Of a DNA stretch of 56,667 bases, positions 10,645 through 47,195 are shown one piece after another. The DNA is from Rhodovulum marinum (GTDB lineage: Bacteria > Pseudomonadota > Alphaproteobacteria > Rhodobacterales > Rhodobacteraceae), in contig NZ_SLXP01000019.1 of assembly GCF_004343075.1 (NCBI RefSeq), positions 1 through 56,667 of the forward strand, read 5' to 3'. A program made the translations under genes and the position numbers. The notes under the pieces are model-generated. The model searched no databases and had not been told where the DNA came from. It was given only the letters and a program-made list of their open reading frames with translations. Position 1 is the first letter of the stretch, and each line of letters starts with the position of its first letter.

Positions 10645-10702
10645 GGGGGGCTCTGCCCCCCGTCCTTCGGACTCCCCCCGGGATATTTCGCGCCAGAAGA
10701 AG
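10645..10702 (+). repeat. Intergenic hairpin repeat, copy A
   Basis: Stem GGGGGGC-TCT-GCCCCCC (10645-10661), second stem GTCC-TTC-GGAC (10662-10672), then CCCCCCGGGATATTT and a tail ending CCAGAAGAAGG. It lies between the divergent alkyltransferase and nth genes. It matches copies at 32.2, 35.2, 40.3 and 47.1 kb. Similarity to copy B continues beyond the tail into GTCTTTT. Confidence 0.85.
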
Positions 10703-10794
10703 GGGCGGAGTCTTTTGCAAGGGATGGTCTTCCGGGGCGGCGCCAGACCGGCGTGCCCCTTGCCCCCATGCCGGGCAGCGGGCATAGGAAAGTC

Positions 10795-11439
10795 ATGGCG
10801 AAGCCCTTGGACTATCACACGATCCACGCGATCTTTACCCGCTTTCACGCGGCCGAGCCCGAACCCAAGGGCGAACTGGAACATGTCAACGCCTATACCC
10901 TGCTGGTGGCGGTGGCGCTTTCGGCGCAGGCGACCGATGCCGGCGTGAACAAGGCGACGCGGCCCCTGTTCGCCAAGGTGGACACGCCGGACAAGATGCT
11001 GGCCCTCGGCGAGGAGGGGTTGATCGCGCATATCAGGACGATCGGCCTTTACCGCAACAAGGCCAGGAACGTGATGAAGCTGAGCCGCATCCTGGTGGAG
11101 GAGTATGGCGGCGAGGTGCCGTCCTCGCGCGCGGCGCTGCAGGCGTTGCCGGGCGTCGGGCGCAAGACGGCGAACGTGGTGTTGAACATGTGGTGGGGCC
11201 TGCCCGCACAGGCGGTCGATACCCACATCTTTCGCGTCGGCAACCGCACCCGCATCGCGCCCGGCCGCACCGTCGACGCCGTGGAACGCGCCATCGAGGA
11301 CAACGTGCCCGCCGAGTTCCAGCGCCACGCCCATCACTGGCTGATCCTGCATGGCCGTTATGTCTGCAAGGCGCGCAAACCCGTTTGCGCCAATTGCATC
11401 ATCCGCGATCTCTGCCCCTACGAGGACAAGACAGAATGA
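10795..11439 (+). CDS. nth: Endonuclease III (base-excision DNA glycosylase/AP lyase)
   Basis: This 214-residue protein removes oxidised pyrimidines and cleaves at the abasic site. The helix-hairpin-helix LPGVGRKTANVVLN contains the catalytic lysine; VDTHIFRVGNR contains the catalytic aspartate; and C-x6-C-x2-C-x5-C (from CKARKPVCANC to RDLC) binds the 4Fe-4S cluster at the C-terminus. The ATG giving MAKPLDYHT has AGGAAA upstream; an in-frame ATG 27 bases earlier is less likely. The stop overlaps the start of the next gene (ATGA), so the two are co-translated. Confidence 0.95.
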   Translation: MAKPLDYHTIHAIFTRFHAAEPEPKGELEHVNAYTLLVAVALSAQATDAGVNKATRPLFAKVDTPDKMLALGEEGLIAHIRTIGLYRNKARNVMKLSRILVEEYGGEVPSSRAALQALPGVGRKTANVVLNMWWGLPAQAVDTHIFRVGNRTRIAPGRTVDAVERAIEDNVPAEFQRHAHHWLILHGRYVCKARKPVCANCIIRDLCPYEDKTE

Positions 11440-12431
11440 CCAAACCCTATCACGTCGTCGGCATCGGAAACGCGATGGTCGATATCCTGGCCCATGCCGA
11501 GGATGCCTTTCTGGACGCGCACGGCGTGCAGAAAGGCATCATGCAGCTGATCGACATGGAGCGCGCGGTGCATCTTTATGGCCAGATCGGACCGGCGCAG
11601 GAGATCTCGGGCGGGTCGGCGGCCAATACCATCGCGGGTATCGCGCATCTGGGCGGGCGCACCGCCTATGTGGGCAAGGTCAAGGACGACCAGCTGGGCG
11701 CGATCTTTGCCCATGACCTGCGCGCGCAGGGGGCCGATTACGACACGCCGATGGCGCCCGGGGACACCGCGGGCGAAACCGGGCGCTGTATCGTTCTGGT
11801 GACGCCGGACGGGGAACGGTCGATGAACACCTATCTCGGCGTGACCGAACACCTGTCGCCCGCCGATATCGACGACCGCCAGGTGGCCGGTGCGGAGTGG
11901 ATCTATCTGGAGGGCTACCGCTTCGACGGGCCGGAAAGCCACGAGGCCTTTGCCAAGGCGATCGGGGCGGCCAAGGCGGCGGGCGGGCGGGTGTCGCTGA
12001 CGCTGTCGGATCCGTTCTGCGTCGAACGCCACCGCGACGCCTTTCGCCGGATGATCGCGGCCGACGTGGACCTGTTGTTCGCCAACCGCGCGGAAATCCT
12101 GTCGATGTACGAAACCGACGATTTCCACGAGGCGCTGAGCCGTGCCGCGGCCGAGGTCGACATCGTCGCCTGCACCGAAAGCGAGCATGGCGCGCATGTC
12201 CTGGCCGAGGGACAGCATTGGCACGTGCCCGCCATCCCGACGCAGGTGGTGGATGCCACCGGGGCGGGCGATCTCTTCGCCGGGGCCTTTCTGTGGGGGC
12301 TGACGCACGGGCGCGACCTGGAGACTTGCGGGCGCATGGGCTGCGTCGCCGCCAGCGAGGTCATCAGCCATATCGGCGCCCGCGCCGAGGCCGACCTTGG
12401 CGTGCTGTTCCGCAGCCATGGCCTGACCTGA
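11436..12431 (+). CDS. PfkB-family carbohydrate/nucleoside kinase (adenosine-kinase-like)
   Basis: This 331-residue ribokinase-fold kinase has an N-terminal GIGNAMVDILA strand, the GGSAANTIAGIAHLGG substrate loop and the C-terminal DATGAGDLFAGAF motif with catalytic base D279. Overall form and length match the alphaproteobacterial proteins annotated as adenosine kinase. ATP-dependent phosphorylation of a sugar or nucleoside is certain; adenosine as substrate is inferred. It is translationally coupled to nth. Confidence 0.88.
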   Translation: MTKPYHVVGIGNAMVDILAHAEDAFLDAHGVQKGIMQLIDMERAVHLYGQIGPAQEISGGSAANTIAGIAHLGGRTAYVGKVKDDQLGAIFAHDLRAQGADYDTPMAPGDTAGETGRCIVLVTPDGERSMNTYLGVTEHLSPADIDDRQVAGAEWIYLEGYRFDGPESHEAFAKAIGAAKAAGGRVSLTLSDPFCVERHRDAFRRMIAADVDLLFANRAEILSMYETDDFHEALSRAAAEVDIVACTESEHGAHVLAEGQHWHVPAIPTQVVDATGAGDLFAGAFLWGLTHGRDLETCGRMGCVAASEVISHIGARAEADLGVLFRSHGLT

Positions 12432-12488
12432 CCGGACGCACGCCCGGCCCCGGCCGGGTGGCGCGCGGTGCTTAAAGCTTCTGAAAAC

Positions 12489-12513
12489 GGGGTTTCCCCA
12501 ATACACTTTGGGG
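12489..12513 (+). promoter_or_regulatory. Two mutually exclusive hairpins in the subtilase leader
   Basis: GGGG (12489-12492) can pair with CCCC (12496-12499) across TTT. The same CCCC, extended to CCCCAA (12496-12501), pairs perfectly with TTGGGG (12508-12513). The two structures compete and lie 70 bases before the subtilase start codon. No U-run follows. Confidence 0.35.
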
Positions 12514-12582
12514 GACCGGGCGCGGGGCGACTGCCGCCTCGGCCCGGTCTCGCGGTGGGAAATCAATCGATTGGAGGAGCTC

Positions 12583-13839
12583 ATGGGCGATCTTTCACGT
12601 TACGTGATTCTGCGCGACCGGAACGCCAACCTGCGCAAACGCGCCGCCGGCGAGGTGCGCGGCGAGGTGGCCGGATTGTCCGGCGTGCTGACCGAGGGGG
12701 CGATCCCGCGGCTGGGCGGGGGGGCGGCTGCCATGCTGCCGCCGGGGCCGGAGCTGGACTCGGCCGACCTGACCGCGAACGAGGCCAAGGACGCGCTGCG
12801 CCAGAACGACGTGGTCGGCGTGGTGCGTGCGATCCCGACCGCGCTGATCGCGCCCAAGGACACCCCCGCCGACGCCGCCGCGACCGACACCTGGGGCATC
12901 AAGGCGGTGCGCGCCGACGTCTCGCCCTTTACCGGGGCCGGGGTCAAGGTCGCGGTGCTGGACACCGGCATCGACGCGGCGCACCCGGCCTTTGCGGGCG
13001 TCACCCTGGTGCAGGCGGATTACACCGGCGAGGGCGACGGCGATGGCAACGGCCACGGCACCCATTGCGCGGGCACGATCTTTGGCCGCGACGTCGACGG
13101 CCAGCGCATCGGCATCGCCCGCGGCGTGACCGAGGCCTTCATCGGCAAGGTTCTGAATGCGCGCGGCTCGGGCACGTCCGAGATGATGTTCAGCGCGCTG
13201 AAACGCGCCTCCGAGGAGAACGTCCAGGTGATCTCGATGTCGCTGGGCTTCGATTTTCCGGGGCTGGTGAAATACCTGATCGAACAGGAGGATTACCCCG
13301 CCGACCTCGCCACCTGGATCGCGCTGGAAGGGTTCCGCACCAACCTGTCGATGTTCAACGCGCTGATGAACATGATCCGCCAGCAGGCGGTGTTCGACGG
13401 CGGCACGGTGATCGTCGCGGCCAGCGGCAACGAAAGCCACCGCGAGATGAACCCGAATTACGAGGTCGGCGCCTCGGTCCCCGCGGTGGCCGAGGGCTGC
13501 ATCGCGGTGGGCGCGTTCCAGCAGGGGGCCGACGGGCTGAAGATCGCCGATTTCTCGAACACCAACCCCGATATCGCGGCCCCCGGCGTGGGCGTGCTGT
13601 CGGCCAAGGTGGGCGGCGGTCTCCGGACGCTTAGCGGCACCTCGATGGCCTGTCCGCATGTCGCGGGGCTGGCCGCGCTGTGGTGGGAGGCCGCGCGCAG
13701 CGGCGTGCTGCCCGCGAATGCCAACACGGTCAGCATGCGCATGCTGTCCTCGGCGGTGGTGGCGGGCATCGCGCCCGGCGTGCACGTGGCCGACCGCGGC
13801 CAGGGGCTGGCCCAGGCGCCGCTGGCGCCCATCGGCTAG
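12583..13839 (+). CDS. Subtilisin-like serine protease (S8), no signal peptide
   Basis: This 418-residue protease has a full catalytic set: D127 (VAVLDTGIDAAHP), H158 (GHGTHCAGT), oxyanion N283 (AASGNES) and S354 (SGTSMACPHVAG). About 100 residues precede the catalytic domain and could be a propeptide/inhibitor-like part; they lack a hydrophobic signal, so export by Sec is not expected. A strong GGAGGA lies 8 bases before the ATG. There is an insertion of roughly 50 residues between the catalytic His and Asn regions (FPGLVKYLIEQEDYPADLAT and following). No cognate inhibitor or substrate gene is evident beside it. Confidence 0.9.
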   Translation: MGDLSRYVILRDRNANLRKRAAGEVRGEVAGLSGVLTEGAIPRLGGGAAAMLPPGPELDSADLTANEAKDALRQNDVVGVVRAIPTALIAPKDTPADAAATDTWGIKAVRADVSPFTGAGVKVAVLDTGIDAAHPAFAGVTLVQADYTGEGDGDGNGHGTHCAGTIFGRDVDGQRIGIARGVTEAFIGKVLNARGSGTSEMMFSALKRASEENVQVISMSLGFDFPGLVKYLIEQEDYPADLATWIALEGFRTNLSMFNALMNMIRQQAVFDGGTVIVAASGNESHREMNPNYEVGASVPAVAEGCIAVGAFQQGADGLKIADFSNTNPDIAAPGVGVLSAKVGGGLRTLSGTSMACPHVAGLAALWWEAARSGVLPANANTVSMRMLSSAVVAGIAPGVHVADRGQGLAQAPLAPIG

Positions 13840-13988
13840 GCCACGGGGAACGTGGAATCGCGCCTCGCCCGGCTGTCCTGGCGGGGCGTTTCCTGCAAGC
13901 GCTTGGATTCCCTTCCTTAACCTTGATTGACCGGTGGGGGGGAGCGTGAGACCCTTGAAGGACTGAAATTATAAGGAGTTACTTTTCA

Positions 13989-14672
13989 ATGTCTCGCAAT
14001 CATTTCAACTTTGCGACGCGTCTCGCGGCGGCGGCTTTCGCGGTTGTCGCCGGTGCAACGGGCGCCTCGGCTGCGCTCATCGGGGTTTCCGGTCCGAACA
14101 GCACGGCCGGCGTCGCGCCGTCGATTATCGGTGCCCCTGCCCATGTGCTGGACGATGTCGTGTTCAATACGGGCATGCAGGGCTTCGACGAGGCGCAGGG
14201 CGTGACGACCACGATGGCCTACACATACGATTCCGGCGTGCTTGCCGCGGGCAGCTATGTTGACAGCCACATGATCTTTCTGAATTCGCAGGGCAATGGC
14301 CGTCTCGAACATTTCGACGTGGTCTGGACCTTCGATGCGCCGATCATCGCGGTGATGTCGGATACCGGGGGCGCCTACGAGGCGGCCAGCACCGGCGAAC
14401 TCGGGGCGGCGGGCACGAATTACACGCTAACCTTCGGCGGGTCGGGGCCGGCGGCGCCGTTCAGCAACCGCGGGCTCGAGGGCGGCGGCGATGGCTATAG
14501 CCTGTTCTCGGCCAACCAGTTGCAGGTCAGCATGGTGGTGACCGAACCCGGCGACTGGATACGGGTCATCACGGCGCCCGCGCCCGTGCCGCTTCCGGCC
14601 GGTTTTCCCCTGGTCCTGACTGGCCTCGGGGCGTTGGGGCTGGCCGCGCGGCGGCGCAAGCGGGCCAACTGA
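13989..14672 (+). CDS. VPLPA-CTERM exported protein (exosortase-type sorting signal)
   Basis: This 227-residue protein has a signal peptide (about 1-29, ending ASA-AL), a beta-rich middle, and a C-terminal PVPLPAGFPLVLTGLGAL hydrophobic helix plus the basic RRRKR tail. This is the VPLPA-CTERM tripartite signal of proteins processed by an exosortase/archaeosortase-like enzyme, common in Rhodobacterales. AAGGAG lies 11 bases upstream. The middle has no domain I recognise. The sorting enzyme is not in this window; the sulfotransferase and branching glycosyltransferase next door may decorate exported polymers or proteins, but that link is inference. Confidence 0.88.
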   Translation: MSRNHFNFATRLAAAAFAVVAGATGASAALIGVSGPNSTAGVAPSIIGAPAHVLDDVVFNTGMQGFDEAQGVTTTMAYTYDSGVLAAGSYVDSHMIFLNSQGNGRLEHFDVVWTFDAPIIAVMSDTGGAYEAASTGELGAAGTNYTLTFGGSGPAAPFSNRGLEGGGDGYSLFSANQLQVSMVVTEPGDWIRVITAPAPVPLPAGFPLVLTGLGALGLAARRRKRAN

Positions 14673-14733
14673 AACCAGGGCGCTCCTTGCGCCGTCCGAA
14701 CCGGGGCCACGTTCCGCGTGGCCCCGTTGCCGT

Positions 14734-15552
14734 TCAGTCGCCCAGCTTGGCGTGCACCTCGTCCAGGTCGATCTCGCCCACCGGCATCTTGTTGGCCGGG
14801 TTCTCGAAATCATAACGGAACAGCTCGAAGTCGCGCTTGTAGATCTCGTAGACCAGGTGCATCGACAGGTCGTCGAAATAGGCCTCGACCGGGTGCGCGC
14901 GTTTCGGCCCGTGCCCTTCGGATTCGTTGAACCGCGGGATCGCCGCCAGGTCGACCGGATGGGGCGTTTCCACGGCGTCCAGCACCTTCTGCATGCCGTC
15001 GTTGAACGTCTCGGTGGCAAAGATGTGGTCGTAGCGCCCGCCATTCACGATGAAGGTCGAGACATGGCCCGACATCGCCGACCAGTGGATGTCGGGTTCC
15101 ATCGGGCGGCGCCAGCGGATCGTGTCGCGGGCGAACAGCAGGAACCGGCGGAAACTGGCGATCTGGTCGAATTCGCCCTTGCCGTCCTCGCCGCCGACCT
15201 CGATCCCGTATTTCTGGATCAGCATCGGCACCAGCTTGCCGCGATAGCGTTTGCCGTTCCGCTGGATGCCGCAGATCTTGTCGAAGAACGATGACAGGAT
15301 GCGGCTGTAGGGGTTGCGCACGCAGGTGAACGCAACCGCCGCACGCCCGCGCACCACGCGTTCGATCGGGGCGTGGCTGTCGTCCTGCGCCCATTTGTGC
15401 AGGCCTTCGGTGGCATCGTGGATATCGCCGTCGAAGAATTCCCCGTGGTCCGAGAAATACATGATCTGGCCGATGGTCGAGCAGGCGCATTTCGGCACCA
15501 CGCGGTAGACCATGCTTTCGCTCGTCGTCATCCAGGTGCCCGGAAAGCCCAT
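14734..15552 (-). CDS. Sulfotransferase family 2 protein (carbohydrate sulfotransferase-like)
   Basis: This 272-residue protein has a 5'-phosphosulfate-binding loop VPKCACSTIG (about 20-29) and a 3'-phosphate-binding segment CVRNPYSRILSSFFDKI (about 77-93). These are the PAPS-binding marks of the HNK-1/chondroitin-type sulfotransferases. It would move sulfate from PAPS to a glycan hydroxyl. The ATG (MGFPG) is preferred because GGAGG sits just before it; the longer frame begins with a TTG inside that site. It is divergent from the branching glycosyltransferase gene, a pairing that suggests they act on the same polymer. Confidence 0.85.
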   Translation of the reverse strand: MGFPGTWMTTSESMVYRVVPKCACSTIGQIMYFSDHGEFFDGDIHDATEGLHKWAQDDSHAPIERVVRGRAAVAFTCVRNPYSRILSSFFDKICGIQRNGKRYRGKLVPMLIQKYGIEVGGEDGKGEFDQIASFRRFLLFARDTIRWRRPMEPDIHWSAMSGHVSTFIVNGGRYDHIFATETFNDGMQKVLDAVETPHPVDLAAIPRFNESEGHGPKRAHPVEAYFDDLSMHLVYEIYKRDFELFRYDFENPANKMPVGEIDLDEVHAKLGD

Positions 15553-15692
15553 GCCCGCCTCCAATCAACCGGCGGGTCTTGCGTTGTGCCGCCTCCGGTG
15601 ACTTCTAGAAACCAAAGTTATAATATTTTTTCAACGACAGGCGGGCCATGGTCGGTGCGCCGCCACAAGACCGAGGACACGGGCAGCGACAG

Positions 15693-17270: not shown

Positions 17271-17279
17271 GGACACCCC

Positions 17280-17660
17280 ATGCCCTATGCCTATGACGAC
17301 CAGAACATCTTCGCCAGAATCCTGCGCGGCGAGATCCCGAACGACACCGTGCTGGAAACCGAACACACGCTGGCCTTCAACGACATCGCCCCGCAGGCCC
17401 CGGTGCATGTGCTGGTGATCCCCAAGGGGCCCTATGTCTGCCACGACCATTTCGCGCTGGAGGCGTCTGATGCCGAGATCGCCGATTTCACCCGCACCGT
17501 GGGCGAGATCTGCCGGATGAAGGGCATCCGCCCCGGCGAGGGCGGCGAGGGCTATCGGCTGATCGTCAATTCCGGCGAACACGGTGTGCAAGAGGTGCCG
17601 CACATGCATGTCCACATCCTGGCCGGGCGCAACCTGGGGCGCATGCTGGCCAAGGGATAG
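17280..17660 (+). CDS. HIT-family nucleotide-binding hydrolase (HinT-like)
   Basis: This 126-residue histidine-triad protein has the triad motif HMHVHILAGR near the C-terminus and an N-terminal NIFARILRGEIPNDTVLE typical of HinT/PKCI proteins that hydrolyse AMP-linked phosphoramidates. The start lies 9 bases after the glycosyltransferase stop, so the two are probably co-transcribed. Whether it serves the glycan pathway is unknown; HinT is widespread as housekeeping. Confidence 0.92.
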   Translation: MPYAYDDQNIFARILRGEIPNDTVLETEHTLAFNDIAPQAPVHVLVIPKGPYVCHDHFALEASDAEIADFTRTVGEICRMKGIRPGEGGEGYRLIVNSGEHGVQEVPHMHVHILAGRNLGRMLAKG

Positions 17661-23925: not shown

Positions 23926-23991
23926 GGGGGGCGCCAGGGGCAGGGCGCGGGCCCGGGCCCGATACCCCGCGCCGCGGTTAGGGCGGGATCT

Positions 23992-24014
23992 GAGTATTTG
24001 GGCCAAGAAAAAGG
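23992..24014 (+). repeat. Intergenic hairpin repeat, tail-only copy F
   Basis: GAGTATTTGGGCCAAGAAAAAGG matches the tail of copy C (GAGTATTTGGACCAAGAAAAAG) but lacks the two hairpins. It lies 66 bases after the polA stop, in a convergent gap. Confidence 0.6.
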
Positions 24015-32181: not shown

Positions 32182-32235
32182 GCCCGTCCCCGGTTTCGCC
32201 CCGGCCGAGTGATCCTCCGGGAAAAGACCCCGGCC

Positions 32236-32293
32236 CTTCTTCTGGCTTCAAATATCCCGGGGGGAGTCCGCAGGACGGGGGGCAGCGCCCCCC
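32236..32293 (-). repeat. Intergenic hairpin repeat, copy B
   Basis: Read on the minus strand: GGGGGGC-GCT-GCCCCCC, then GTCC-TGC-GGAC, then CCCCCCGGGATATTTG and AGCCAGAAGAAG. It begins 26 bases after the stop of the minus-strand lipoprotein gene and could act as its 3' structure, although no clear U-run follows. Confidence 0.85.
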
Positions 32294-35245: not shown

Positions 35246-35309
35246 GGGGGCGCTGCCCCCTCTTGTCCTGCGGACAATTCACCCCCGGAGTATTTGGACC
35301 AAGAAAAAG
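35246..35309 (+). repeat. Intergenic hairpin repeat, copy C, between glcD and glcE
   Basis: Stem GGGGGC-GCT-GCCCCC (35246-35260), stem GTCC-TGC-GGAC (35265-35275), then ACCCCCGGAGTATTTGG and CCAAGAAAAAG, which runs straight into the glcE ATG at 35310. The repeat fills nearly the whole intercistronic gap, so the hairpins must lie in the glcDEF mRNA and the tail serves as the glcE leader. Confidence 0.85.
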
Positions 35310-37866: not shown

Positions 37867-38697
37867 ATGCGATTGCGCTTGCCTTGTCTTCCGGCGCTGG
37901 CCGGGATGGTCCTGACCCTGTTCGCGGGCCTTGCCGCGGCGGCCGACATGCCGCTGCGCAGCCTGGCCACCGGTGACGCCGCCAAGGGCTGGGAGGCGGT
38001 CGGGCGGCTGGACCTGGGCGGCGAGGGGTTCTGTACCGGCGCGCTGATCGCCCCCGACCTGGTTCTGACCGCCGCGCATTGCCTGTTCGACAAGCTGTCG
38101 GGCGCGCCCGTCCCGCTGGCAGCCATGGAATTCCGCGCCGGCTGGCGCAATGGCCGGGCCGAAGCCTATCGCAAGCTGAGCCGCGCCATCGTGCACCCCG
38201 CGTATGATTTCGGCGACGATCCGACCATGGCGCGGGTCGCCCATGACCTGGCCCTGTTGCAGCTGGACCGGCCGATCCGGCAGCCGGGCCTGGCCCCCTT
38301 CGCCACCGCGGGCAAACCGCGCAAGGGCGACGAGGTGGGCGTGGTGTCCTACGCCCTGGGCCGGTCCGAGGCGCCCTCGCTGCAAGAGGTGTGCCAGGTG
38401 CTGGCCGGGCGGCCCGGTGTGGTGCTGATGTCCTGCGATGTCGATTTCGGCGCCTCGGGCGCGCCGGTGTTCCGGGTCGAGGACGGGGTGCCGCGCATCG
38501 TGTCGGTGGTCTCGGCCAAGGCCGAGATGTCCAGCCGCAAGGTCGCGCTGGGCACCGCGCTGGGCGACACGCTCGACCTGCTCCGGGCGCGGCTGGCGTC
38601 GGGCGAGGGCGTGATCGGCGACACCGCGCCGCCGCTGCACCGCTTCGGCCAGGGCGGCGCGCGCGCGGGCGGCGGCGCCAAGTTCGTCAGGCCCTGA
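37867..38697 (+). CDS. Exported trypsin-like serine protease (first of a tandem pair)
   Basis: This 276-residue protein has a signal peptide (about 1-25, ending AAA-ADM) and a chymotrypsin-fold domain with H71 (LTAAHCLF), D127 (VAHDLALLQL) and S197 (FGASGAPVF). Cysteines C72 and those in VCQV and SCDVDF could form disulfides. After a Gly-rich linker the protein ends in AKFVRP, a tail shared with the next gene. It is followed after 4 bases by the paralogue. The substrate is unknown; it is probably periplasmic. Confidence 0.9.
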   Translation: MRLRLPCLPALAGMVLTLFAGLAAAADMPLRSLATGDAAKGWEAVGRLDLGGEGFCTGALIAPDLVLTAAHCLFDKLSGAPVPLAAMEFRAGWRNGRAEAYRKLSRAIVHPAYDFGDDPTMARVAHDLALLQLDRPIRQPGLAPFATAGKPRKGDEVGVVSYALGRSEAPSLQEVCQVLAGRPGVVLMSCDVDFGASGAPVFRVEDGVPRIVSVVSAKAEMSSRKVALGTALGDTLDLLRARLASGEGVIGDTAPPLHRFGQGGARAGGGAKFVRP

Positions 38698-38701: not shown

Positions 38702-39514
38702 ATGCGCTGGCCCGGTCTCGCGTTTCTTGCCCTTCTGCTGCTGGCGCCGCTGCCCGCGGCGTCCGATACCGGGCTGCGCCGGCTGGGCCAGCGCGCCGAC
38801 CTTCTGGGCTGGGAGGCGGTGGGCCGGCTGGACCAGGCGGGCGGCGGGTTCTGCACCGGTGTCTTGGTCGCGCCCGACCTTGTGCTGACCGCGGCCCATT
38901 GCCTGTTCGACCGCGCCGGTCAGCGCGTCGACCCGGCGCGGCTGACCTTTCGCGCGGGGCTGTCGGACGGCACCGCCATCGCCGCGGTCGCGGGCCGCCG
39001 CGCGGTGATCCACGAGGGCTACCGCCCCGATGATCCCGACGCGATGGCCCGGCTGCGGGCCGACGCGGCGCTGGTGCAACTGGCCCGGGCGATTCCTGCG
39101 GCCGTCGCCGCACCCTTTGCCGCGGGCCGCGCGGTGGGCAAGGACGGGACGGTCAGCGTGGTGTCCTATGCCCGCGGGCGCGAGAACGCGCTGTCCTGGC
39201 AACGCGGCTGCACGGTGATCGAGCGGGCGCAAGGGCTCTACGCGTTTTCCTGCGATGTCTGGTTCGGCTCGTCGGGCGCGCCGGTGTTCGAAAACTCGTC
39301 GGGGCGGGCGCGGATCGTGTCGATCGTTTCGGCGGGCAACCGCGAGGGGGGCGAAACGGTGGCCTTCGGCACCGACGCGGCCGAGGCGCTGGACAGCTTG
39401 CGCGCGGCGCTGCGCGCCGGGCGCGGCGTCTTCCCCGCCGAGGGGGTCACGGCCCGCCGCCTGCCCGCCGGGGGCGGGGGGCGCGATATCGGCGCCCGCT
39501 TCGTGCGCCCCTGA
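38702..39514 (+). CDS. Exported trypsin-like serine protease (second of a tandem pair)
   Basis: This 270-residue paralogue of the preceding gene has signal peptide PGLAFLALLLLAPLPAAS, H66 (LTAAHCLF), D121 (LRADAALVQL) and S191 (FGSSGAPVF). The shared block GWEAVGRLD followed by FCTG indicates tandem duplication. The C-terminus is again a Gly-rich linker plus ARFVRP. Middle regions have diverged well, so the duplication is old and both catalytic sets have been kept. Confidence 0.9.
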   Translation: MRWPGLAFLALLLLAPLPAASDTGLRRLGQRADLLGWEAVGRLDQAGGGFCTGVLVAPDLVLTAAHCLFDRAGQRVDPARLTFRAGLSDGTAIAAVAGRRAVIHEGYRPDDPDAMARLRADAALVQLARAIPAAVAAPFAAGRAVGKDGTVSVVSYARGRENALSWQRGCTVIERAQGLYAFSCDVWFGSSGAPVFENSSGRARIVSIVSAGNREGGETVAFGTDAAEALDSLRAALRAGRGVFPAEGVTARRLPAGGGGRDIGARFVRP

Positions 39515-40182: not shown

Positions 40183-40211
40183 GGCGCGCGGGCAGGTTCC
40201 GCGCGCCTTTT
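40183..40211 (+). terminator. Intrinsic terminator of hsp20
   Basis: A perfect 9-bp stem GGCGCGCGG (40183-40191) with CCGCGCGCC (40199-40207), a 7-base loop, then TTTT, 30 bases after the hsp20 stop. Confidence 0.85.
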
Positions 40212-40276
40212 GCGTTCGGGGCCGTCGGTCGGGGGGGCCTTTGGTTTCGCCCCGGCTGTCGCCGGGGCGACCGGCT

Positions 40277-40326
40277 GGGGGGCGCCGCCCCCCAGACCCC
40301 CAGGGGTATTTCAGCCAAGAAGAAGA
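40277..40326 (+). repeat. Intergenic hairpin repeat, copy D (second hairpin missing)
   Basis: Stem GGGGGGC-GCC-GCCCCCC (40277-40293), then a shortened middle AGACCCCCAGGGGTATTTC and tail AGCCAAGAAGAAG. The GTCC/GGAC hairpin is absent. It sits between the convergent hsp20 and EF-G-like genes, after the hsp20 terminator. Confidence 0.75.
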
Positions 40327-40372
40327 ACCGGACTGCCGAAGTCGGTGGATCGGCCATCCTGCGGCGCGGGTC

Positions 40373-42307
40373 TCAGGCCAGTTCCGCCGCGCGCGCCTCG
40401 CGGATGCGGTCGGCATCCTTGCCGTGCAATTCCTCGTAATGGTCGAACCGGCTTTCGAACCAGGCCGTGCCGTGGGTCAGCCCGCCCAGCGCCTGGAACA
40501 GGTCCTCCTTGGCGGCCGCGGGCAGCAGGGCCTGGAACACGTCCCAGCCGCGGGCCTGCCCGTGCGGCTCGAAGCCCAGCACCTGCCCCTTGAGGCTGCC
40601 GGCCAGCGCCACCAGCGCGCCGGAATAGACCGTGGGCACGTGGATCGCCACCCGCTCGACCGGCTGCAGCACCACGGCACCGGCCTTTTCCAGGGCCTCG
40701 CGCACGCCGGTCTTGGCCGCGGTGCGGAAGGCGTGGTCGGAACTGTCGACCGCGTGGGGTTTGCCGTCGGTCAGCGTCACCGCCACATCGACCACCGGAA
40801 AGCCCAGCGGCCCCTGTTCCATCGCCTCGCGCGCGCCGGCCTCGACCGCGGGGATATAGTTCTTGGGCACCGCGCCGCCCTTCACCGTGTCGTCGAAGGC
40901 AAAGCCCGCGCCGCGGCCCTGGGGCCGGATCGTCAGTTGCACATCGGCGAACTGCCCCGCGCCGCCGGTCTGCTTGCGGTGGCGGTGATGGGTTTCGACG
41001 GTTCGGGTGATGGTTTCGCGGTAGATGCCCGACACGGGATGTTCGCTGGCCTCGATGCCGAAATCCTCGGCCAGCTTGGCCAGCACCCGGCGCATGTGGA
41101 TCGGCCCCTGAAGCCGCGCGACCAGGTGGCCCGTTTCGCTGTCCTGGGTCAGCTCCATCCCCGGGTCGGCGGCCGCGATCCGGGCCAGCGCCGCCGACAG
41201 CCGCACGTCGTCGCGTTCGTTCGCGGGCACCAGCACGCGCGCATAGGCGGGCGGGCGGCCGCGGGTCCAGCCGGGCAGTTCCTCGGCCTCTGTCGCGGTA
41301 TAGGCAAAGCCCGGCTCCAGGTGATCCGACTTCACCGCCACGGCCAGCGTGCCGGGGTCCAGCGGTTCGGGCACCGGCTTGCCGTCGATCCCGGCCAGGT
41401 TGCCGATGGTGCCGCCGGCCAGCGGGCTGCCATGCTGCACCGGGCTGCCCAGCGCCCGGATCAGGGTGGACTTGCCGACATGTTTCTTCGTGTCGCCCGC
41501 CACCCCGATGGCCAGCGGCGCCGCGACGCCGAGGCGCAGCCCGATCGCCTCCATCCCCGGGGCCTCGTGGCGCAGCGCCTTCATCAGCCGGGTCAGGCCG
41601 TTGCCGTGGCTGGCCGCGCCCAGGTAGGCGGCCATCACCGCGTTGTCGCGATGGGCCTCGGCCAGCACCTTGTAGACCTCTTCGGTGGGCGGCGCGCGGT
41701 CCTCGATCAGCTGTTCCATCAGGTGGTCGTCGAAATCGGCCAGGTGTTCCAGCAGCTCGGCGCGGGCCTCCTGTTCGCGGTCATGCAGGTCGTCGGGGAT
41801 CTCGATCAGTTTCGAGGGCTGGCCCTCCTGGTACTGGAACGCGCGTTCCGAGATCAGGTCGACCGCGCCCACCACGTGGCCGTCCGCGTCGCGGATCGGC
41901 GCCTGGCGCAGCACGATATGGTGGTTGGCATAGGCCTGCAGGGCGCCGACGATGTCGCGGATGCGGGCCTCGTCCTGGTCCATCTTGTTGATGAAGACGA
42001 AGCAGGGCACGTCGGATTGTTCCACCAGCCGCAGATAGGGCGCGGCCAGCACCGCGGCGTCGGGTTCGGGCGGCACGCACAGGATCGCGGCGTCGCTGGC
42101 GGCCAGCGCCTCGCCCGCATGGCCCAGGTAATCGGGCCCGCCCGCGATGTCGAAGCCCGCCCAGGGTTCGCCCAGGTAGGTGAACTGGCTGACCGTCAGG
42201 GCGTCGGTGAACCGGGCGGTGACGGGGCGCCCGTCCAGTTCGCTCAGGGCTTTCAGCAGGGTCGACTTGCCCGCCTGCGAGGGGCCCAGGATCGTGAAAC
42301 AGCGCAT
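40373..42307 (-). CDS. Elongation factor G-like GTPase (EF-G2/FusA2-like) with degenerate G motifs
   Basis: This 644-residue protein has the EF-G domain order (GTPase, domain II, and domains III-V with ETITRTVETHHRHRKQTGGAGQ and GSLKGQVLGFEPHG). It is shorter than canonical EF-G (about 690-700). The P-loop is present (GPSQAGKST, residues 8-16) and NKMD is at 107-110, but the G3 element reads DIAG at 53-56 instead of DTPG with the catalytic His, and the G2 RGITI element is missing. It is unlikely to be the main translocase; possibly a ribosome-associated or stress factor. GGAGG lies 10 bases before the ATG. Confidence 0.85.
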   Translation of the reverse strand: MRCFTILGPSQAGKSTLLKALSELDGRPVTARFTDALTVSQFTYLGEPWAGFDIAGGPDYLGHAGEALAASDAAILCVPPEPDAAVLAAPYLRLVEQSDVPCFVFINKMDQDEARIRDIVGALQAYANHHIVLRQAPIRDADGHVVGAVDLISERAFQYQEGQPSKLIEIPDDLHDREQEARAELLEHLADFDDHLMEQLIEDRAPPTEEVYKVLAEAHRDNAVMAAYLGAASHGNGLTRLMKALRHEAPGMEAIGLRLGVAAPLAIGVAGDTKKHVGKSTLIRALGSPVQHGSPLAGGTIGNLAGIDGKPVPEPLDPGTLAVAVKSDHLEPGFAYTATEAEELPGWTRGRPPAYARVLVPANERDDVRLSAALARIAAADPGMELTQDSETGHLVARLQGPIHMRRVLAKLAEDFGIEASEHPVSGIYRETITRTVETHHRHRKQTGGAGQFADVQLTIRPQGRGAGFAFDDTVKGGAVPKNYIPAVEAGAREAMEQGPLGFPVVDVAVTLTDGKPHAVDSSDHAFRTAAKTGVREALEKAGAVVLQPVERVAIHVPTVYSGALVALAGSLKGQVLGFEPHGQARGWDVFQALLPAAAKEDLFQALGGLTHGTAWFESRFDHYEELHGKDADRIREARAAELA

Positions 42308-42621
42308 GGAATGACATCCTCCGATCGGTCGCGTGGCACGGGTTATGGCTCGCGTGCCCTGCGCGCCGGCCGATGTGCTGCGCCCGGACCGGAGGCCGTT
42401 TCGTCGGCCTGCCCCGGCCGTCGGGTGCGGCCGCCGAAGGCGCCGGGCCGCTGTCCCGTCTGCCCCGATGTTCCCCGTTAACGTCAGGCCCGGTCAAGGC
42501 AAATCTGGGGTCATCGGGACGCACCACGGGGGCCGTGCGGGCCGGGGTGTCGCAGGCCGGGTTCATCCCCCGTTAACGGGCGGCGTGCAACGTGACCCTG
42601 TTCTGATTAGGCGGAGATACG
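42308..42621. other. Divergent control region with repeated GTTAAC sites
   Basis: This is a 314-bp gap between the EF-G-like and globin genes without an ORF of note. CCCCGTTAACG occurs twice (42473-42483 and 42567-42577); the second is part of the 12-bp palindrome CCCGTTAACGGG. The repeated site, 94 bp apart and 45 bp before the globin start, may be an operator for the globin gene. Confidence 0.4.
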
Positions 42622-43056
42622 ATGGAAGCGCGCGCCCGGAAAATCGTCGTCGAAAGCGCGGGGCCGATCTTTGCGGCCAAGGGGCGCTTTGCCGACTTCT
42701 TTTACCAGCACCTGTTCGACCTCGCGCCCGAGACGCGCGCCCTGTTCCGGCGCGACCTTCACAGGCAGAAACGCATGCTGATGGCGGCGCTGGCCATGGT
42801 CGTGGGGGTGCTTGGCGACCGCGACAGGCTGGCGGCCACGGCGGCGCATCTGGGCCGCGTGCATGCCAACCGGCGGGTGCGGCACGCCCACATGATGCTG
42901 GGCCAACGGGCCTTCGACCTGGCGCTGGCCGATTTCTACGGCCCCGCCTGCACCGATGAAATGCGCATCGCGTGGCAATCGGCCTATGCGCAGGTGCTGG
43001 AAATGATGGAGATCGCCCCCGATCCCTGCGCGCTGGCCGAAACCGGCACCGCCTGA
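42622..43056 (+). CDS. Single-domain globin
   Basis: This 144-residue haem protein of the flavohaemoglobin-like globin class has B/C helices FFYQHLFDLAPETRALF, a distal region FRRDLHRQKRMLMAALAMVV and the proximal haem ligand H81 in LGRVHANRRV, followed by the GxxAFDLAL helix. There is no reductase domain and no signalling domain. Its role could be oxygen or nitric-oxide handling; neither is provable from sequence. Confidence 0.85.
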   Translation: MEARARKIVVESAGPIFAAKGRFADFFYQHLFDLAPETRALFRRDLHRQKRMLMAALAMVVGVLGDRDRLAATAAHLGRVHANRRVRHAHMMLGQRAFDLALADFYGPACTDEMRIAWQSAYAQVLEMMEIAPDPCALAETGTA

Positions 43057-43073
43057 GGGCCCGGGGGCCCCGC

Positions 43074-44546
43074 TCAGACCGACATGCAGATGTATTTCAT
43101 CTCCAGGTAATCCTCCATGCCGTGCCGGCTGCCCTCGCGGCCCAGCCCCGATTGCTTGACACCGCCAAAGGGCGCCACCTCGGTCGAGATGATGCCGGTA
43201 TTCACCCCCACGATCCCGTATTCCAGCGCCTCGGCCACCTTGTAGACCCGGCTCAGGTCGCGGGCATAGAAATAGGACGCCAGCCCGAAGATCGTGTCGT
43301 TCGCCATCGCGATCACGTCGTCCTCGGTCTCGAACCGGAACAGGGGCGCGACGGGGCCAAAGGTCTCCTCGCAGGCGAACTGCATCTCCTGCGTGGCGCC
43401 GGTGACCACGGTGGGTTCAAAGAACGTGCCGCCGCGGGCGTGCCGCTGGCCGCCCGACAGCACCTGCGCGCCCTTGGCGGTGGCGTCGGCGATATGCTCC
43501 TCGACCTTGGCCAGCGCGTCGTCGGAAATCAGCGGGCCAAGGTCGGTGCCGTCGTCCAGCCCGTCGCCCACACGCAACCGCGCCACCGCCGCGGCCAGTT
43601 TCTCGGCGAAGGCGTCATAAACGCCCGCCTGCACATACAGGCGGTTGGCGCAGACGCAGGTCTGGCCGTTGTTGCGGAACTTGCAGGCGATGGCGCCCTC
43701 GACGGCGGCATCCAGATCGGCGTCGTCGAACACGATGAAGGGCGCGTTCCCGCCCAGTTCCATCGAACATTTCATCACCTGTTCGGCAGCCTGCTTCAGC
43801 AGGATGCGCCCCACCTCGGTCGACCCGGTAAAGGTGATCTTGCGCACGGTCGGATTTTCGCAGAACTCGCGGCCGATCTCCGACGACCGCGACGATGTCA
43901 CCACCGACAGCACCCCCTTGGGCACACCCGCGCGCTCGGCCAGCACCGCCATGGCCAGCGCCGAAAGCGGCGTCTCGCCCGCGGGCTTGATCACCATCGA
44001 ACAGCCCGCCGCCAGCGCCGGGCCCGCCTTGCGGGTGATCATCGCGTTGGGAAAGTTCCACGGCGTGATCGCCGCCGTCACCCCGATCGGCTGGCGGATC
44101 ACGGTCAGCCGCTTGTCGGCCTGGTGGCCCGGGATCGTCTCGCCATAGATGCGCTTGGCCTCTTCGGCGAACCACTCGATGAACGACGCGCCATAGGCGA
44201 TCTCGCCGCGGGATTCGCTCATCGGCTTGCCCATCTCGGCGGTCAGGATCACTGCCAGGTCCTCTTGCGCGGCCATCATCAGGTCGAACCAGCGGCGCAG
44301 GATGTTCGCGCGTTCCTTGGCGGTCTTCGCGGCCCAGTCCTTTTGCGCGACATGCGCGGCCTCGATCGCGCGGGCGGTTTCGGCGCGGGTCAGGTCGGGC
44401 ACGGTGCAGATCACCTTGCCGGTGGCCGGGTTCACCACCTCGAACGTCGCGCCGTCATCGGCGTCGATCCACCGGCCGCCGACATGGGCCTGCGTCACCA
44501 GCAGGTCGGAATCCCTCAGAAGGCTCTTGAGATCGCTTGCGGGCAT
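43074..44546 (-). CDS. gabD: NAD(P)-dependent succinate-semialdehyde dehydrogenase
   Basis: This 490-residue aldehyde dehydrogenase has PWNFPNAMITRKAGPALAAG, the catalytic glutamate in SMELGGNAPFIVFDDADLD and the catalytic cysteine in NNGQTCVCANR. The second Cys two residues later and the C-terminal GGVKQSGLGREGS match GabD, which oxidises succinate semialdehyde to succinate in GABA breakdown. GGGAGG lies 8 bases upstream. No gabT or gabP lies beside it. Glutarate-semialdehyde activity is an alternative. Confidence 0.88.
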   Translation of the reverse strand: MPASDLKSLLRDSDLLVTQAHVGGRWIDADDGATFEVVNPATGKVICTVPDLTRAETARAIEAAHVAQKDWAAKTAKERANILRRWFDLMMAAQEDLAVILTAEMGKPMSESRGEIAYGASFIEWFAEEAKRIYGETIPGHQADKRLTVIRQPIGVTAAITPWNFPNAMITRKAGPALAAGCSMVIKPAGETPLSALAMAVLAERAGVPKGVLSVVTSSRSSEIGREFCENPTVRKITFTGSTEVGRILLKQAAEQVMKCSMELGGNAPFIVFDDADLDAAVEGAIACKFRNNGQTCVCANRLYVQAGVYDAFAEKLAAAVARLRVGDGLDDGTDLGPLISDDALAKVEEHIADATAKGAQVLSGGQRHARGGTFFEPTVVTGATQEMQFACEETFGPVAPLFRFETEDDVIAMANDTIFGLASYFYARDLSRVYKVAEALEYGIVGVNTGIISTEVAPFGGVKQSGLGREGSRHGMEDYLEMKYICMSV

Positions 44547-44596
44547 CGGTCATCCTCCCTTCCGTTCGGGCGCAGGCAAACACGGAGGGCGGGGAA

Positions 44597-45418
44597 ATGT
44601 CCAGTGACGAGGGCGGGATCGACTGGGACGACGCCTATGCCAATGCCGCGCACATTGCGGGCGCCGACGCCTACCCGCCGCGCTGGGCCGCCGCGGCGGC
44701 CGCGTTCCGGGCCGGCGCGCGCGGCGAAACCGACCTGCCCTATGGCGACCACCCGCGCCAGCGCTTCGACATCTTCCTGCCCGCGGGGCGGGCGCTTGGG
44801 CTGGCGGTGTTCGTCCATGGCGGCTATTGGCTGCGCTTCGACAAGTCGGTCTGGTCGCACCTGGCGGCCGGGCCGCTGGCCCGCGGCTGGGCGGTGGCGA
44901 TGCCCTCCTACCGGCTGGCCCCCGAGGTGCCCATCGCCGCCATCACCGCCGATATCGCCGCCGCGCTGCCGGTCATGGCGCGGCTGGTGCCCGGGCCGCT
45001 GGCGCTGGCCGGCCATTCCGCGGGCGGGCATCTGGTGGCGCGGATGCTGTGCGCCGATGTCGGCTTGCCCCGGGCCGTGGCCGAACGCCTCGCCCGCGTG
45101 GTGCCGATCTCGCCGGTGTCGGACCTGCGCCCGCTGCTGCGCACCCGGATGAACGACAGCTTCCGCCTGGACGACGCCGCCGCCCGCGCCGAAAGCCCGG
45201 TCTGCCACGCGCCGCGCCTCGGCGTTCCGGTCACCGTCTGGGTGGGCGCCGACGAACGCCCGGTCTTCCTCGACCAGGCGCGCTGGCTGGCCGAGGCCTG
45301 GCCGGGCACCGATCTGCACATCGCCCCAGGCCTGCACCATTTCGACGTGATCGAGGGGCTGACCCGCCCCGACAGCCCCCTGACCGAGGCGGTCATCGGC
45401 CCCGGCGCGGGGGGCTGA
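44597..45418 (+). CDS. Alpha/beta hydrolase, kynurenine-formamidase-like
   Basis: This 273-residue hydrolase has an oxyanion motif HGGYWLRFDKSVW, nucleophile S141 in LAGHSAGGHLVARM, the acid in VTVWVGADERPVF and His in GLHHFDVIEGL. The HGGYW motif is a mark of the alpha/beta-hydrolase class of arylformamidase, which opens N-formylkynurenine in tryptophan breakdown. No kynurenine genes are adjacent, so the substrate stays an inference. It is divergent from gabD with a 50-bp gap; GGAGG is upstream. Confidence 0.8.
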   Translation: MSSDEGGIDWDDAYANAAHIAGADAYPPRWAAAAAAFRAGARGETDLPYGDHPRQRFDIFLPAGRALGLAVFVHGGYWLRFDKSVWSHLAAGPLARGWAVAMPSYRLAPEVPIAAITADIAAALPVMARLVPGPLALAGHSAGGHLVARMLCADVGLPRAVAERLARVVPISPVSDLRPLLRTRMNDSFRLDDAAARAESPVCHAPRLGVPVTVWVGADERPVFLDQARWLAEAWPGTDLHIAPGLHHFDVIEGLTRPDSPLTEAVIGPGAGG

Positions 45419-45467
45419 CACCGCGCCCCGCGCGTCGCTGCGATGCAGCGAAAGCGCATATAAAAGT

Positions 45468-45515
45468 CATATGGGATTCATATGGGATTCATATGGAATT
45501 CATATGCGATTCATA
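45468..45515. repeat. Tandem 11-bp repeat, four units plus a partial fifth
   Basis: Units CATATGGGATT (45468), CATATGGGATT (45479), CATATGGAATT (45490), CATATGCGATT (45501), then CATAT (45512). Each unit starts with the palindrome CATATG. It lies in a 112-bp gap between two convergent genes. The 11-bp period puts the palindromes on nearly the same face of the helix. It is AT-rich in a GC-rich setting. Confidence 0.9.
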
Positions 45516-45530
45516 TCGCGGAATCCGACC

Positions 45531-46088
45531 CTATCGGCCGAATCCCGACAGCCCGTCAAAGTCGATCTTTTCCAGCACCGGCAGCATCGCATCCCGCCCC
45601 GCCCCGCTGGCCTGGATCAGAATTCGGTTGTCCACCAGCGCCGTCAATTCACCGTCCTGGTCGACGAATTTCTGCCGCCCCACCCGCACGATCTCTCCGG
45701 CCGTGCCCATCAGCATCGGGTTGCCGAACATCGCCGCCATCGCGGCCACCATCGGGTTGTCGGCCATCAGCGTGACGGTGAAACTCTGCCCGTCCCCGGC
45801 ATAGGTCGCCTCGGCCCCCGTGCCGCCGCCCATCATGGCAAGTCCTTGATTCATATCGGTTTCCACCTCGCGGGTCCAGCCGTCGGGCGCCGGTGGCAGG
45901 AACCCGGTCAGCCCCTCGGCCTTCATCGCCTGCAGCAATTGCTGGGCATAGGCGATCTCTTCCAGGGCGTATTTCACGTCACCCGATTCATAGGCCTCGA
46001 TGGCGCTTTGCAGCGTGTCGGTGACATCGTCGGCCAGCGCCGCAGGGGCGGCCAGGGCGATCAGGGCGGAAAGGGTCAGGCGTTTCAT
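45531..46088 (-). CDS. Small exported protein of unknown function
   Basis: This 185-residue protein has signal peptide MKRLTLSALIALAAPAALA, a helical part (VTDTLQSAIEAYESGDVKYA, LEEIAYAQQLLQAMK), then a beta-type region with FTVTLMADNPMVAAMAAMFGN and a C-terminal DRNR-free alpha/beta end (ALVDNRILIQASGAG). Similar unnamed periplasmic proteins exist in Proteobacteria. AAGGA lies 7 bases before the ATG. It is a single gene, convergent with the formamidase-like gene. Confidence 0.78.
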   Translation of the reverse strand: MKRLTLSALIALAAPAALADDVTDTLQSAIEAYESGDVKYALEEIAYAQQLLQAMKAEGLTGFLPPAPDGWTREVETDMNQGLAMMGGGTGAEATYAGDGQSFTVTLMADNPMVAAMAAMFGNPMLMGTAGEIVRVGRQKFVDQDGELTALVDNRILIQASGAGRDAMLPVLEKIDFDGLSGFGR

Positions 46089-46124
46089 GGGGCGTCCTTC
46101 AGGGTTGTATCACGGCGCAGCCTA

Positions 46125-47123
46125 TCACCCGCCTCCCCGCCGCTCAAACCGCGCCTGCCAACAGGGTAACGGATCGCCCGGCGCCGGTGTCGCGTGATAC
46201 ACACCACGCGCAATCGCCCTTGCCAAACAACAACTTGCGGCATGTCCCAGCAACAGGGAATCGCGGTCCGGATCGCCCAGCGGCCGCGCCCCCGTCGCCG
46301 CCGCAAAGACCAGGTCGCCGTCGAACAGCGTGTGACTTGGCACCAGCGCCCGCGCGATCCCGTCATGCGCGGCCACCGCCAACCGCGTCGCCTGCGCCTG
46401 GGTCAGGGCGGCATCGGTCGCCACGATGGCGATGGTCGTGGCCCGCCCCGTCAGCTTGGTCCGCGGCACCGTCGCCGGGTCTTGCCGGCCGACCCCCAAG
46501 CCCCCGAATTCAGTGCCGATTTCGAACGGCGCGGCCCAGAATTCCGGCCCGCCCCCCATCACCGCCGAGCCCACCGCGTTCACCGCGACCAACGCGCCCA
46601 CGGTGATCCCGCTGTCCAACACCACCGAGGCCGAGCCCAGCCCCCCCTTCAGGTCCGCCGTCGTCGCCCCGAACCCCGCCCCCGCACTGCCCAGGGCGAA
46701 CTCCTCCGCGACGGCGGAAAGCGCGGAACTTCCCAGCTTTTTGTACGGGTTATCTTCCCAATCCTTGTCGCCGCCATTCAGCAGGTCGAACAGGATCGCG
46801 CCGGGCACGATGGGCACCCGCTGGCCCCCCACCTCGAAACCCCGCCCCATCGCGCGCAAACCGTCCGCCACGCCCGAGGCCGCATCCAGACCAAAGGCCG
46901 AGCCCCCCGCCAGAACCAGCGCGTCCACCTCCTGCACCAGCCGGTCGGGCGCCAGCAGGTCGGTCTCGCGCGTGCCCGGCGCGCCGCCCATCACGTGAAC
47001 GCCCGCCACGAAAGGCGCCGCGCCGACCAGAACGCTGACCCCGGTCTTGATCCGCACGTCATGGGCCTGCCCCACCCGCAGCCCGGCAATATCGGTGATC
47101 AGGTTTCTCGGTCCCGGCCGCAT
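46125..47123 (-). CDS. P1 family (S58, DmpA-like) aminopeptidase
   Basis: This 332-residue N-terminal-nucleophile hydrolase has NLITDIAGLRVGQAHD, TRETDLLAPDRLVQEVDALV, LAGGSAFGLDAASGV and KGGLGSASVV, where family members self-cleave before the nucleophilic Ser/Thr. DmpA-type enzymes release N-terminal amino acids or beta-amino acids. Its start follows directly on repeat copy E, whose AAGAAGG tail is the only ribosome-binding-site-like element. It is probably the last gene of the operon that begins with the peptide ABC transporter, which fits a role in peptide use. Confidence 0.88.
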   Translation of the reverse strand: MRPGPRNLITDIAGLRVGQAHDVRIKTGVSVLVGAAPFVAGVHVMGGAPGTRETDLLAPDRLVQEVDALVLAGGSAFGLDAASGVADGLRAMGRGFEVGGQRVPIVPGAILFDLLNGGDKDWEDNPYKKLGSSALSAVAEEFALGSAGAGFGATTADLKGGLGSASVVLDSGITVGALVAVNAVGSAVMGGGPEFWAAPFEIGTEFGGLGVGRQDPATVPRTKLTGRATTIAIVATDAALTQAQATRLAVAAHDGIARALVPSHTLFDGDLVFAAATGARPLGDPDRDSLLLGHAASCCLARAIARGVYHATPAPGDPLPCWQARFERRGGG

Positions 47124-47132
47124 GCCCCGCCC

Positions 47133-47195
47133 CTTCTTCTGGCTGCAAATATCCCGGGGGAGTCGCCGCCCCGCGGCGACGGGGGCAGCGCCCCC
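47133..47195 (-). repeat. Intergenic hairpin repeat, copy E, with a covarying second stem
   Basis: Read on the minus strand: GGGGGC-GCT-GCCCCC (47195-47181), then GTCGCCGC-GGG-GCGGCGAC (47180-47162), then TCCCCCGGGATATTTG and CAGCCAGAAGAAGG. The second stem differs from the GTCC/GGAC of the other copies but still pairs perfectly over 8 bp. It starts 6 bases after the SDR stop, and the tail ends about 9 bases before the P1 peptidase start. Confidence 0.88.

What the first reader, a model, noticed from the sequence alone, without database searches (positions are those of the whole stretch)
10645..47195. A dispersed family of structured intergenic repeats with a covarying stem
Five copies (10645+, 32236-, 35246+, 40277+, 47133-) and one tail-only copy (23992+) share a GGGGGC-GCT-GCCCCC-like hairpin, usually a GTCC-N3-GGAC hairpin, a CCCCCGGGATATTTG core and a CCAGAAGAAG tail. 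In copy E the second stem has changed to GTCGCCGC/GCGGCGAC, eight pairs that still match perfectly. Different bases with pairing kept imply selection for the folded form. All copies are intergenic, and five of six lie in sense orientation just after a stop codon.
Basis: partly seen in the sequence, partly recalled or inferred. Interest (0 to 1): 0.75.

Follow-up and report, generated by a model that had tools for sequence, protein, structure and literature searches.

The report
Gene-end repeats with genome-specific dialects
Bacteria of one large family place a short two-part DNA sign at the ends of many genes, and each genome spells part of that sign in only one or a few ways; what reads it is unknown.

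Summary
The copies are real and not chance, but the stem is not what defines them. They belong to a family-wide class of gene-end elements whose constant part is a 23-bp bipartite core: a left half such as GGRRTATTT, three free bases, then an 11-base purine-rich tail. The own genome has 112 cores by one pattern (reversed control 0). In the order 144 of 292 genomes have at least one match to a wider pattern; outside the family 2 of 285, at control level. Rfam has no match in the window.

Each genome seen uses one to four tail 'dialects'. In 102 own copies the base before TATTT and the tail agree across the free bases in 102. A copy between glcD and glcE carries its own genome's dialect (0 of 20000 permutations as close, ten genomes). 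Hairpins covary, but 23 of 102 own copies lack both common heads and strand bias is weak (43 sense, 31 antisense).

Best reading, not shown: a bidirectional transcript-boundary sign read by an unknown factor. Rivals: a mobile repeat; a 3'-UTR RNA. Ten paper searches found no description.

The parts
10645..10679 (+). copy A, head A: G6/C6 hairpin, GTCC-TTC-GGAC hairpin, second C6 run
   Evidence: 19 near-identical head-A copies in the genome
10680..10702 (+). copy A, core GGGATATTT-CGC-GCCAGAAGAAG (type 1); between divergent genes, no element at this gap in 6 of 6 congeners
23991..24013 (+). copy F, core TGAGTATTT-GGG-CCAAGAAAAAG (type 2) without a common head, after polA
32259..32293 (-). copy B, head A
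32236..32258 (-). copy B, core GGGATATTT-GAA-GCCAGAAGAAG (type 1), between convergent genes
35246..35286 (+). copy C, head: G5/C5 hairpin, TTGTCC-TGC-GGACAA hairpin, C5 run, in the glcD-glcE gap
35287..35309 (+). copy C, core GGAGTATTT-GGA-CCAAGAAAAAG (type 2), directly before the glcE start; place kept across genera
40244..40302 (+). copy D, head B: GTTTCGCC..GGCGAC hairpin plus G6/C6 hairpin
40303..40325 (+). copy D, core GGGGTATTT-CAG-CCAAGAAGAAG (type 2), between convergent genes
47156..47195 (-). copy E, head: G5/C5 hairpin plus 8-pair GTCGCCGC/GCGGCGAC hairpin
47133..47155 (-). copy E, core GGGATATTT-GCA-GCCAGAAGAAG (type 1); same gap in G152 with other free bases (CGG), in G158 and G149 with a type-2 core

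Best explanation
It is a gene-3'-end boundary element. A 23-bp bipartite core (left half GGRRTATTT or similar, three free bases, 11-base dialect tail) sits behind stop codons, usually capped by GC-rich hairpins and sometimes doubled tail-to-tail. Shown: sequence, place, spread, dialects, linkage of the two halves, concerted change. Inferred: a factor (protein or RNA) whose specificity differs between genomes reads the core and helps end or block transcription from either side, with TATTT as the weak hybrid just before the block and the hairpins helping release or protecting the 3' end; when the factor's specificity drifts, the copies drift with it. The three free bases would be an unread spacer between two half-sites.
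For: Gene-end placement: of 181 copies in five genomes (home-made gene caller) 80 lie in convergent gaps, 86 in tandem gaps, 10 in divergent gaps, 1 overlaps a called gene, 4 at edges; in antisense tandem copies the tail lies a median 12 nt from the neighbouring stop. The same gene ends carry elements again in congeners, often with another head, orientation or type: of 18 congener elements listed, 5 are at C, 8 at the gene ends of B, D, E or F, 2 (one pair) about 1 kb past polA, 3 elsewhere (places judged by me, some cores degenerate). Sequence-specific reading: outside N3 19 head-A copies are 96.3% identical, N3 40.9%, flanks 37.2% and 30.1%. Base before TATTT and tail agree across N3 in 102 of 102 own copies (A with GCCA or ACCA tails in 57, G or C with CCAAG in 45) and in 33 of 33 G221 copies in hand. 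The glcD-glcE copy matches its own genome's dialect: 11 mismatches in ten genomes, 0 of 20000 permutations as low. Pair spacing clusters at 7-12 nt (G000, G003, G010) or 19-23 nt (G197, G221).
Against: No reader is known and no RNA or protein data were available. A canonical terminator scan does not call any of the six copies in sense; one hit at 32217-32233 uses the reversed tail of copy B as its T-rich stretch, but such hits are no more frequent than in shuffles (5 against 7.6). On the antisense side there is no hairpin next to the tail: 30-nt folds average -5.57 against -5.54 shuffled, 323 copies. Some copies lie behind an ordinary hairpin plus T-run (by eye), where a second stop seems needless. 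The glcD-glcE copy lies inside an operon-like pair, so termination there cannot be complete. Near-identical heads suggest copying, which a mere binding site does not need. Copy A is a recent gain between divergent genes. Two of ten glcD-glcE tails (G010, G003) do not fit their genome's dialect.
Confidence: 0.42

Rival explanations
1. A non-autonomous mobile extragenic repeat (REP- or RIME-like) that is copied around the genome and tolerated behind genes, with little or no host function; dialects are founder effects of recent bursts.
For: 19 near-identical head-A copies; copy A is absent in 6 of 6 congeners; copies B and D differ from congeners; avoidance of divergent gaps is what tolerance would give; inverted pairs as in REPINs; two linked sub-families per genome are what two founders would give.
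Against: N3 is nearly as variable as flanks inside otherwise identical copies, which simple copying does not give; the glcD-glcE copy is recognisable by eye in 21 of 29 orthologs and follows its genome's dialect; no match to the RAYT family PF01797 in the own genome; gene ends re-occupied.
Confidence: 0.28
2. A 3'-UTR RNA structure: hairpins that end or protect mRNA, with cleavage or termination at UAUUU, including uncoupling of genes within operons (glcD-glcE, gap-fba).
For: Compensatory changes in stems; loops of hairpin 1 keep one orientation (by eye); the AU motif fits the AU enrichment reported around RNase E cleavage positions in R. sphaeroides (PMC6238624, passages); sense copies in glcD-glcE and in C. 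sphaeroides gap-fba.
Against: No clear sense bias (43 to 31); wobble test points the other way; 23 of 102 own copies without a common head; does not explain the dialects of a tail that lies beyond the putative end.
Confidence: 0.2
3. A species tag for DNA exchange, analogous to DNA uptake sequences, kept at gene ends.
For: Dialects, and closely spaced inverted pairs at convergent gene ends, as described for uptake signals (PMC1852404, passages; PMC3630211, search listing and start of abstract).
Against: 112 copies by one pattern against generally 1000 or more for uptake signals; 1 of 181 copies overlaps a called gene.
Confidence: 0.05

Closest known systems
REP / REPIN / BIME elements of gammaproteobacteria
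   Same: short palindromic extragenic repeats, singles and inverted pairs, strain-specific types, rare between divergent genes (recalled)
   Different: no match to the RAYT family PF01797 in the own genome; three-base spacer that varies among otherwise identical copies; one place kept across genera
DNA uptake sequences (DUS/USS) and the terminators made of them
   Same: dialects by species (listing); closely spaced inverted pairs enriched at tail-to-tail gene ends
   Different: about ten times fewer copies, almost none in genes, bipartite core with free spacer, GC heads
Intrinsic (Rho-independent) terminators
   Same: hairpin followed by a U-rich stretch at gene ends
   Different: only UAUUU behind GGRR, conserved sequence beyond the putative end, both orientations, copies without a common head; not called in sense by the scan
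RIME and related mosaic elements of rhizobia
   Same: alphaproteobacterial intergenic mosaic repeats (recalled, not compared by sequence)
   Different: other order; no sequence test made

Membership tests
RAYT-dependent REP/REPIN | RAYT (Y1_Tnp, PF01797) gene in the genome | tested here: not met
   0 matches in the own genome; 2 of 30 genomes searched have one
RAYT-dependent REP/REPIN | extragenic palindromic unit, also as inverted pairs | tested here: met
   23 of 102 own copies lack a common hairpin head
Intrinsic terminator | stem directly followed by T-rich tract | tested here: not met
   none of the six copies is called in sense; one antisense hit at 32217-32233 ends in the reversed tail of copy B; hits not above shuffles (5 vs 7.6; 6 vs 8.1)
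Intrinsic terminator | sense orientation behind genes | tested here: inconclusive
   43 sense, 31 antisense unpaired tandem copies, p = 0.20
Intrinsic terminator | ends transcription | not testable with these tools
   no RNA data held
DNA uptake sequence | about 1000 or more copies, also inside genes | tested here: not met
   112 in the genome by one pattern; 1 of 181 overlaps a called gene
DNA uptake sequence | raises DNA uptake | not testable with these tools
   needs an uptake assay
Structured RNA family in Rfam 15 | covariance model match in the window | tested here: not met
   no match even at E up to 1
RIME / rhizobial mosaic element | sequence similarity to RIME | not tested
   no RIME sequence was compared

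The most novel reading that the evidence does not exclude
A whole bacterial family marks gene ends with a bipartite site read by a trans-acting factor whose specificity changes from genome to genome, so that dozens to more than a hundred sites per genome are rewritten in concert: a bacterial counterpart, in logic only, of site-directed terminator proteins.
Probability: 0.3. Interest if true: 0.85.

Novelty: new variant of a known kind. Interest (0 to 1): 0.68.

Why it matters
If it is a mobile repeat, in the own genome it has no match to the known REP transposase family, and the three bases that differ between otherwise identical copies are themselves unexplained.

Tried and rejected
RAYT-REP system: rejected for the own genome. 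Known RNA family: none in the window. tRNA or tmRNA genes beside copies without a same-sense upstream gene: none in the window or the 16 loci scanned. Phage origin: no match in the phage collection for the one query, copy A. Tail as a free-standing motif: GCCAGAAGAAG occurs 70 times in the genome, reversed control 11; at least 54 of the 70 belong to full cores (102 of 112 cores in hand). Strictly sense-strand RNA: not supported. Hairpin on the antisense side of the tail: none above shuffles. DNA-uptake tag: unlikely by number and place. Strings of the core in papers: 13 papers, none on Rhodobacterales by title. Papers: ten searches gave no description of this repeat in the listings; PMC6238624, PMC7866481, PMC5107571 and PMC1852404 were seen as found passages only, PMC3630211 only as a listing with the start of its abstract. 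Proteins were scanned only to name neighbours.
Full report
Observation. The six places were read directly and are as described, apart from orientation and the loop of copy D. Pattern scans of the window exceed shuffles clearly. In the own genome the pattern GGRNTATTTN4CMARRARRAG has 76 exact matches, 34 forward and 42 reverse, and 0 for the reversed pattern; without the GGRN prefix there are 112, control 0. Rfam 15 has no match in the window at its own thresholds or at E up to 1.

Anatomy. I printed 75 of the 76 copies (one stretch was not fetched). The heads are of several kinds: two hairpins with C-runs (A); a GTTTCGCC..GGCGAC hairpin plus G-run hairpin (B); a GCCTCCGGCG head, sometimes behind a T-run (C); a GCCAT..ATGGC-type hairpin (D). 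Of 102 own copies in hand (of 112) a G-run/C-run hairpin is found in 66, GCCTNCGGC alone in 13, neither in 23 (simple patterns). Of 22 own copies without the GGRN prefix that I printed, ten have TG[AG]GTATTT like window copy F; some of these have other hairpins, and upstream folding energies are often strong in this GC-rich genome. Constant in all is the core: left half ending in TATTT, three free bases, then mostly GCCAGAAGAAG (type 1) or CCAAGAARAAG (type 2).

Linkage and free spacer. The base before TATTT and the tail agree across the free bases in 102 of 102 own copies: A with GCCA or ACCA tails (57), G (44) or C (1) with CCAAG. In 19 own copies with head A, mean pairwise identity is 0.963 outside N3, 0.409 in N3, 0.372 and 0.301 in the right and left flanks. 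At glcD-glcE N3 is GGA in five of the six same-genus genomes with the element, own included, and CAG in G158, so it is not simply hypermutable.

Dialects. By the first pattern 32 of 149 family genomes match (two of 149 have a reversed-pattern match); by a wider one 144 of 292 in the order, all 292 at least 90% complete, many with only a few matches. The patterns do not cover every spelling: Ruegeria sp. TM1040 has GTTAGAAGA-type tails. At class level 2 of 285 genomes outside the family match, and 4 have reversed-pattern matches. With the right half left almost free I searched 21 distinct genomes; rows were printed for ten. Those show one to four main tails each: CAACGAAGAAG and AACAGAAGAAG in G010, GCAAGATGAAG in G280, TCCAAAAGAAG in G139, four in G044 and in G221. 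Exceptions: six GGGATATTT rows of G197 have six different tails, and a few rows in G010, G044, G250, G139 and G027 look like chance. In the G221 rows listed, GGGA goes with AACAGGCGAAG and GGAG with other tails, and the 33 copies in hand agree (15 and 18); in G194 GGGA goes with CCAGAAAGAAG (two variants aside) and GGAG with CCAAGATGAAG.

A kept place. I searched 30 chosen genomes, mostly element-rich, for GlcD and PolA; 29 have each. After glcD I recognise an element by eye, some with degenerate tails, in 21 of 29. Behind polA I see one in six (G000, G129, G027, G194, G197, G250) and in G149 in antisense, of 29. In ten genomes whose dialect I had seen, the glcD-glcE tail has 11 mismatches in total to its own genome's dialects (eight genomes 0 or 1, G010 4, G003 5), and none of 20000 permutations is as low. 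The other eleven glcD-glcE tails were not tested because I had not seen, or not fully seen, their genome's dialects; G002 for example has GACAGAAGAAG there, which the pattern could not have found elsewhere. This is concerted evolution at a kept place, by selection through a reader or by replacement with local copies; I cannot separate these.

Covariation. On eight glcD-glcE sequences hairpin 2 has 48 of 48 cells paired, two of six pairs with changes on both sides, covariation score 0.393 against 0.080 in shuffles (0 of 500 as high; the number of pairs with both-side change is reached by 196 of 500) and lower scores when slid. I left out seven of the 15 sequences of the larger alignment because their second hairpin is shifted or of another kind, and six more of the 21 that were not in it. 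In G003 16 of 23 copies have a 5-pair hairpin CCTNC-GGC-GN'AGG directly before TATTT, with three pair types at N. So pairing is kept, in RNA or in DNA. A test for G.U tolerance on the sense strand gave 10 G.T and 23 A.C among 129 single mismatches over 323 copies, opposite to an RNA expectation; shuffled sequences gave more G.T than A.C.

Place and strand. With a home-made gene caller (a first version was poor), 181 copies from five genomes fall as 64 convergent plus 16 paired convergent, 43 tandem sense, 31 tandem antisense, 12 paired tandem, 10 divergent, 1 overlapping a gene, 4 at edges. So they sit at gene ends and are rare in promoter regions; the sense preference is not significant. Fifteen of 80 own copies had no same-sense upstream gene, and no missed gene or tRNA was found beside them.

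Pairs. An inverted tail within 3-29 nt is found for 27 of 99 copies in G000 (spacers 7-12 nt), 3 of 23 in G003 (8), 1 of 23 in G010 (11), 8 of 26 in G197 (19-23), 21 of 33 in G221 (20-22; eight of its 20 regions were chosen because they hold pairs) and 0 of 27 in G006. Spacings near one or two helical turns hint at binding on one face, which is inference. In G221 the eight pairs in the listing each join a GGGA core to a GGAG or GGGG core; one further pair (L385) joins two non-GGGA cores with different tails. The spacer holds AATTTGANTCAAATT in 9 of 11 G221 pairs. In G000 like and unlike pairs both occur.

Turnover. Of the window copies in six congeners, A is absent in 6 of 6, C is present in 5 of 6 (degenerate in G160), E has counterparts in G152, G158 and G149, and D has no clear element in G152 and at most a doubtful core in G149. 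At gene ends B, D, E and F congeners carry elements of other head, type or orientation. Two weak matches (G149 L253 8086, G157 L259 16047) were not counted. Gains occur, but certain gene ends are occupied again and again.

Who has it. With copy A as query the plasmid collection gave 16 records of Paracoccus, Cereibacter, Loktanella, Leisingera, Thalassococcus, Salipiger, Sagittula, Ruegeria and Tritonibacter, which I recall as Rhodobacterales; 14 matches lie under no annotated gene, one (Thalassococcus) under bchB, one record has no annotation. In Cereibacter sphaeroides a copy lies between gap and fba. Phages: none.

Mechanism. The terminator scan calls none of the six copies in sense; one of its hits, antisense to copy B, ends in the reversed tail, but over 323 copies there is no hairpin beside the tail on that side, so an ordinary two-way hairpin terminator is not supported. 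Because the strict part is a split sequence with a free three-base gap, its halves are linked, it changes as a whole between genomes, and it lies behind genes in either orientation, I think a specific reader that helps end or block transcription is most likely (0.42). From the last T of TATTT to the end of the tail is 14 bp, the distance at which RNA polymerase is recalled to stall before a bound EcoRI mutant; this is a recalled figure and only a hint.

Noticed in passing
window 45455-45520: Tandem run of ATATGGGATTC-like units in the convergent gap 45419-45530, AT-rich in a GC-rich genome.
   Followed up: no
window 37986-38091 and 38806-38911: 106-nt direct repeat at 83% identity in two neighbouring plus-strand genes, probably a tandem gene duplication.
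   Followed up: no
window 40373-42307: An elongation-factor-G-like gene (NCBIfam NF009379) next to an ibpA-like heat shock gene.
   Followed up: no
L374-L393 (genome G221): The pair spacer holds the palindrome AATTTGANTCAAATT, centred on GANTC, the CcrM methylation site (recalled), in 9 of 11 pairs; three single copies (L386, L387, L393) hold near matches.
   Followed up: partly
   Followed up: partly
L043, about 1600 (own genome C5): Upstream of one copy there is an unusually long G run followed by a C run, perhaps an assembly artefact.
   Followed up: no
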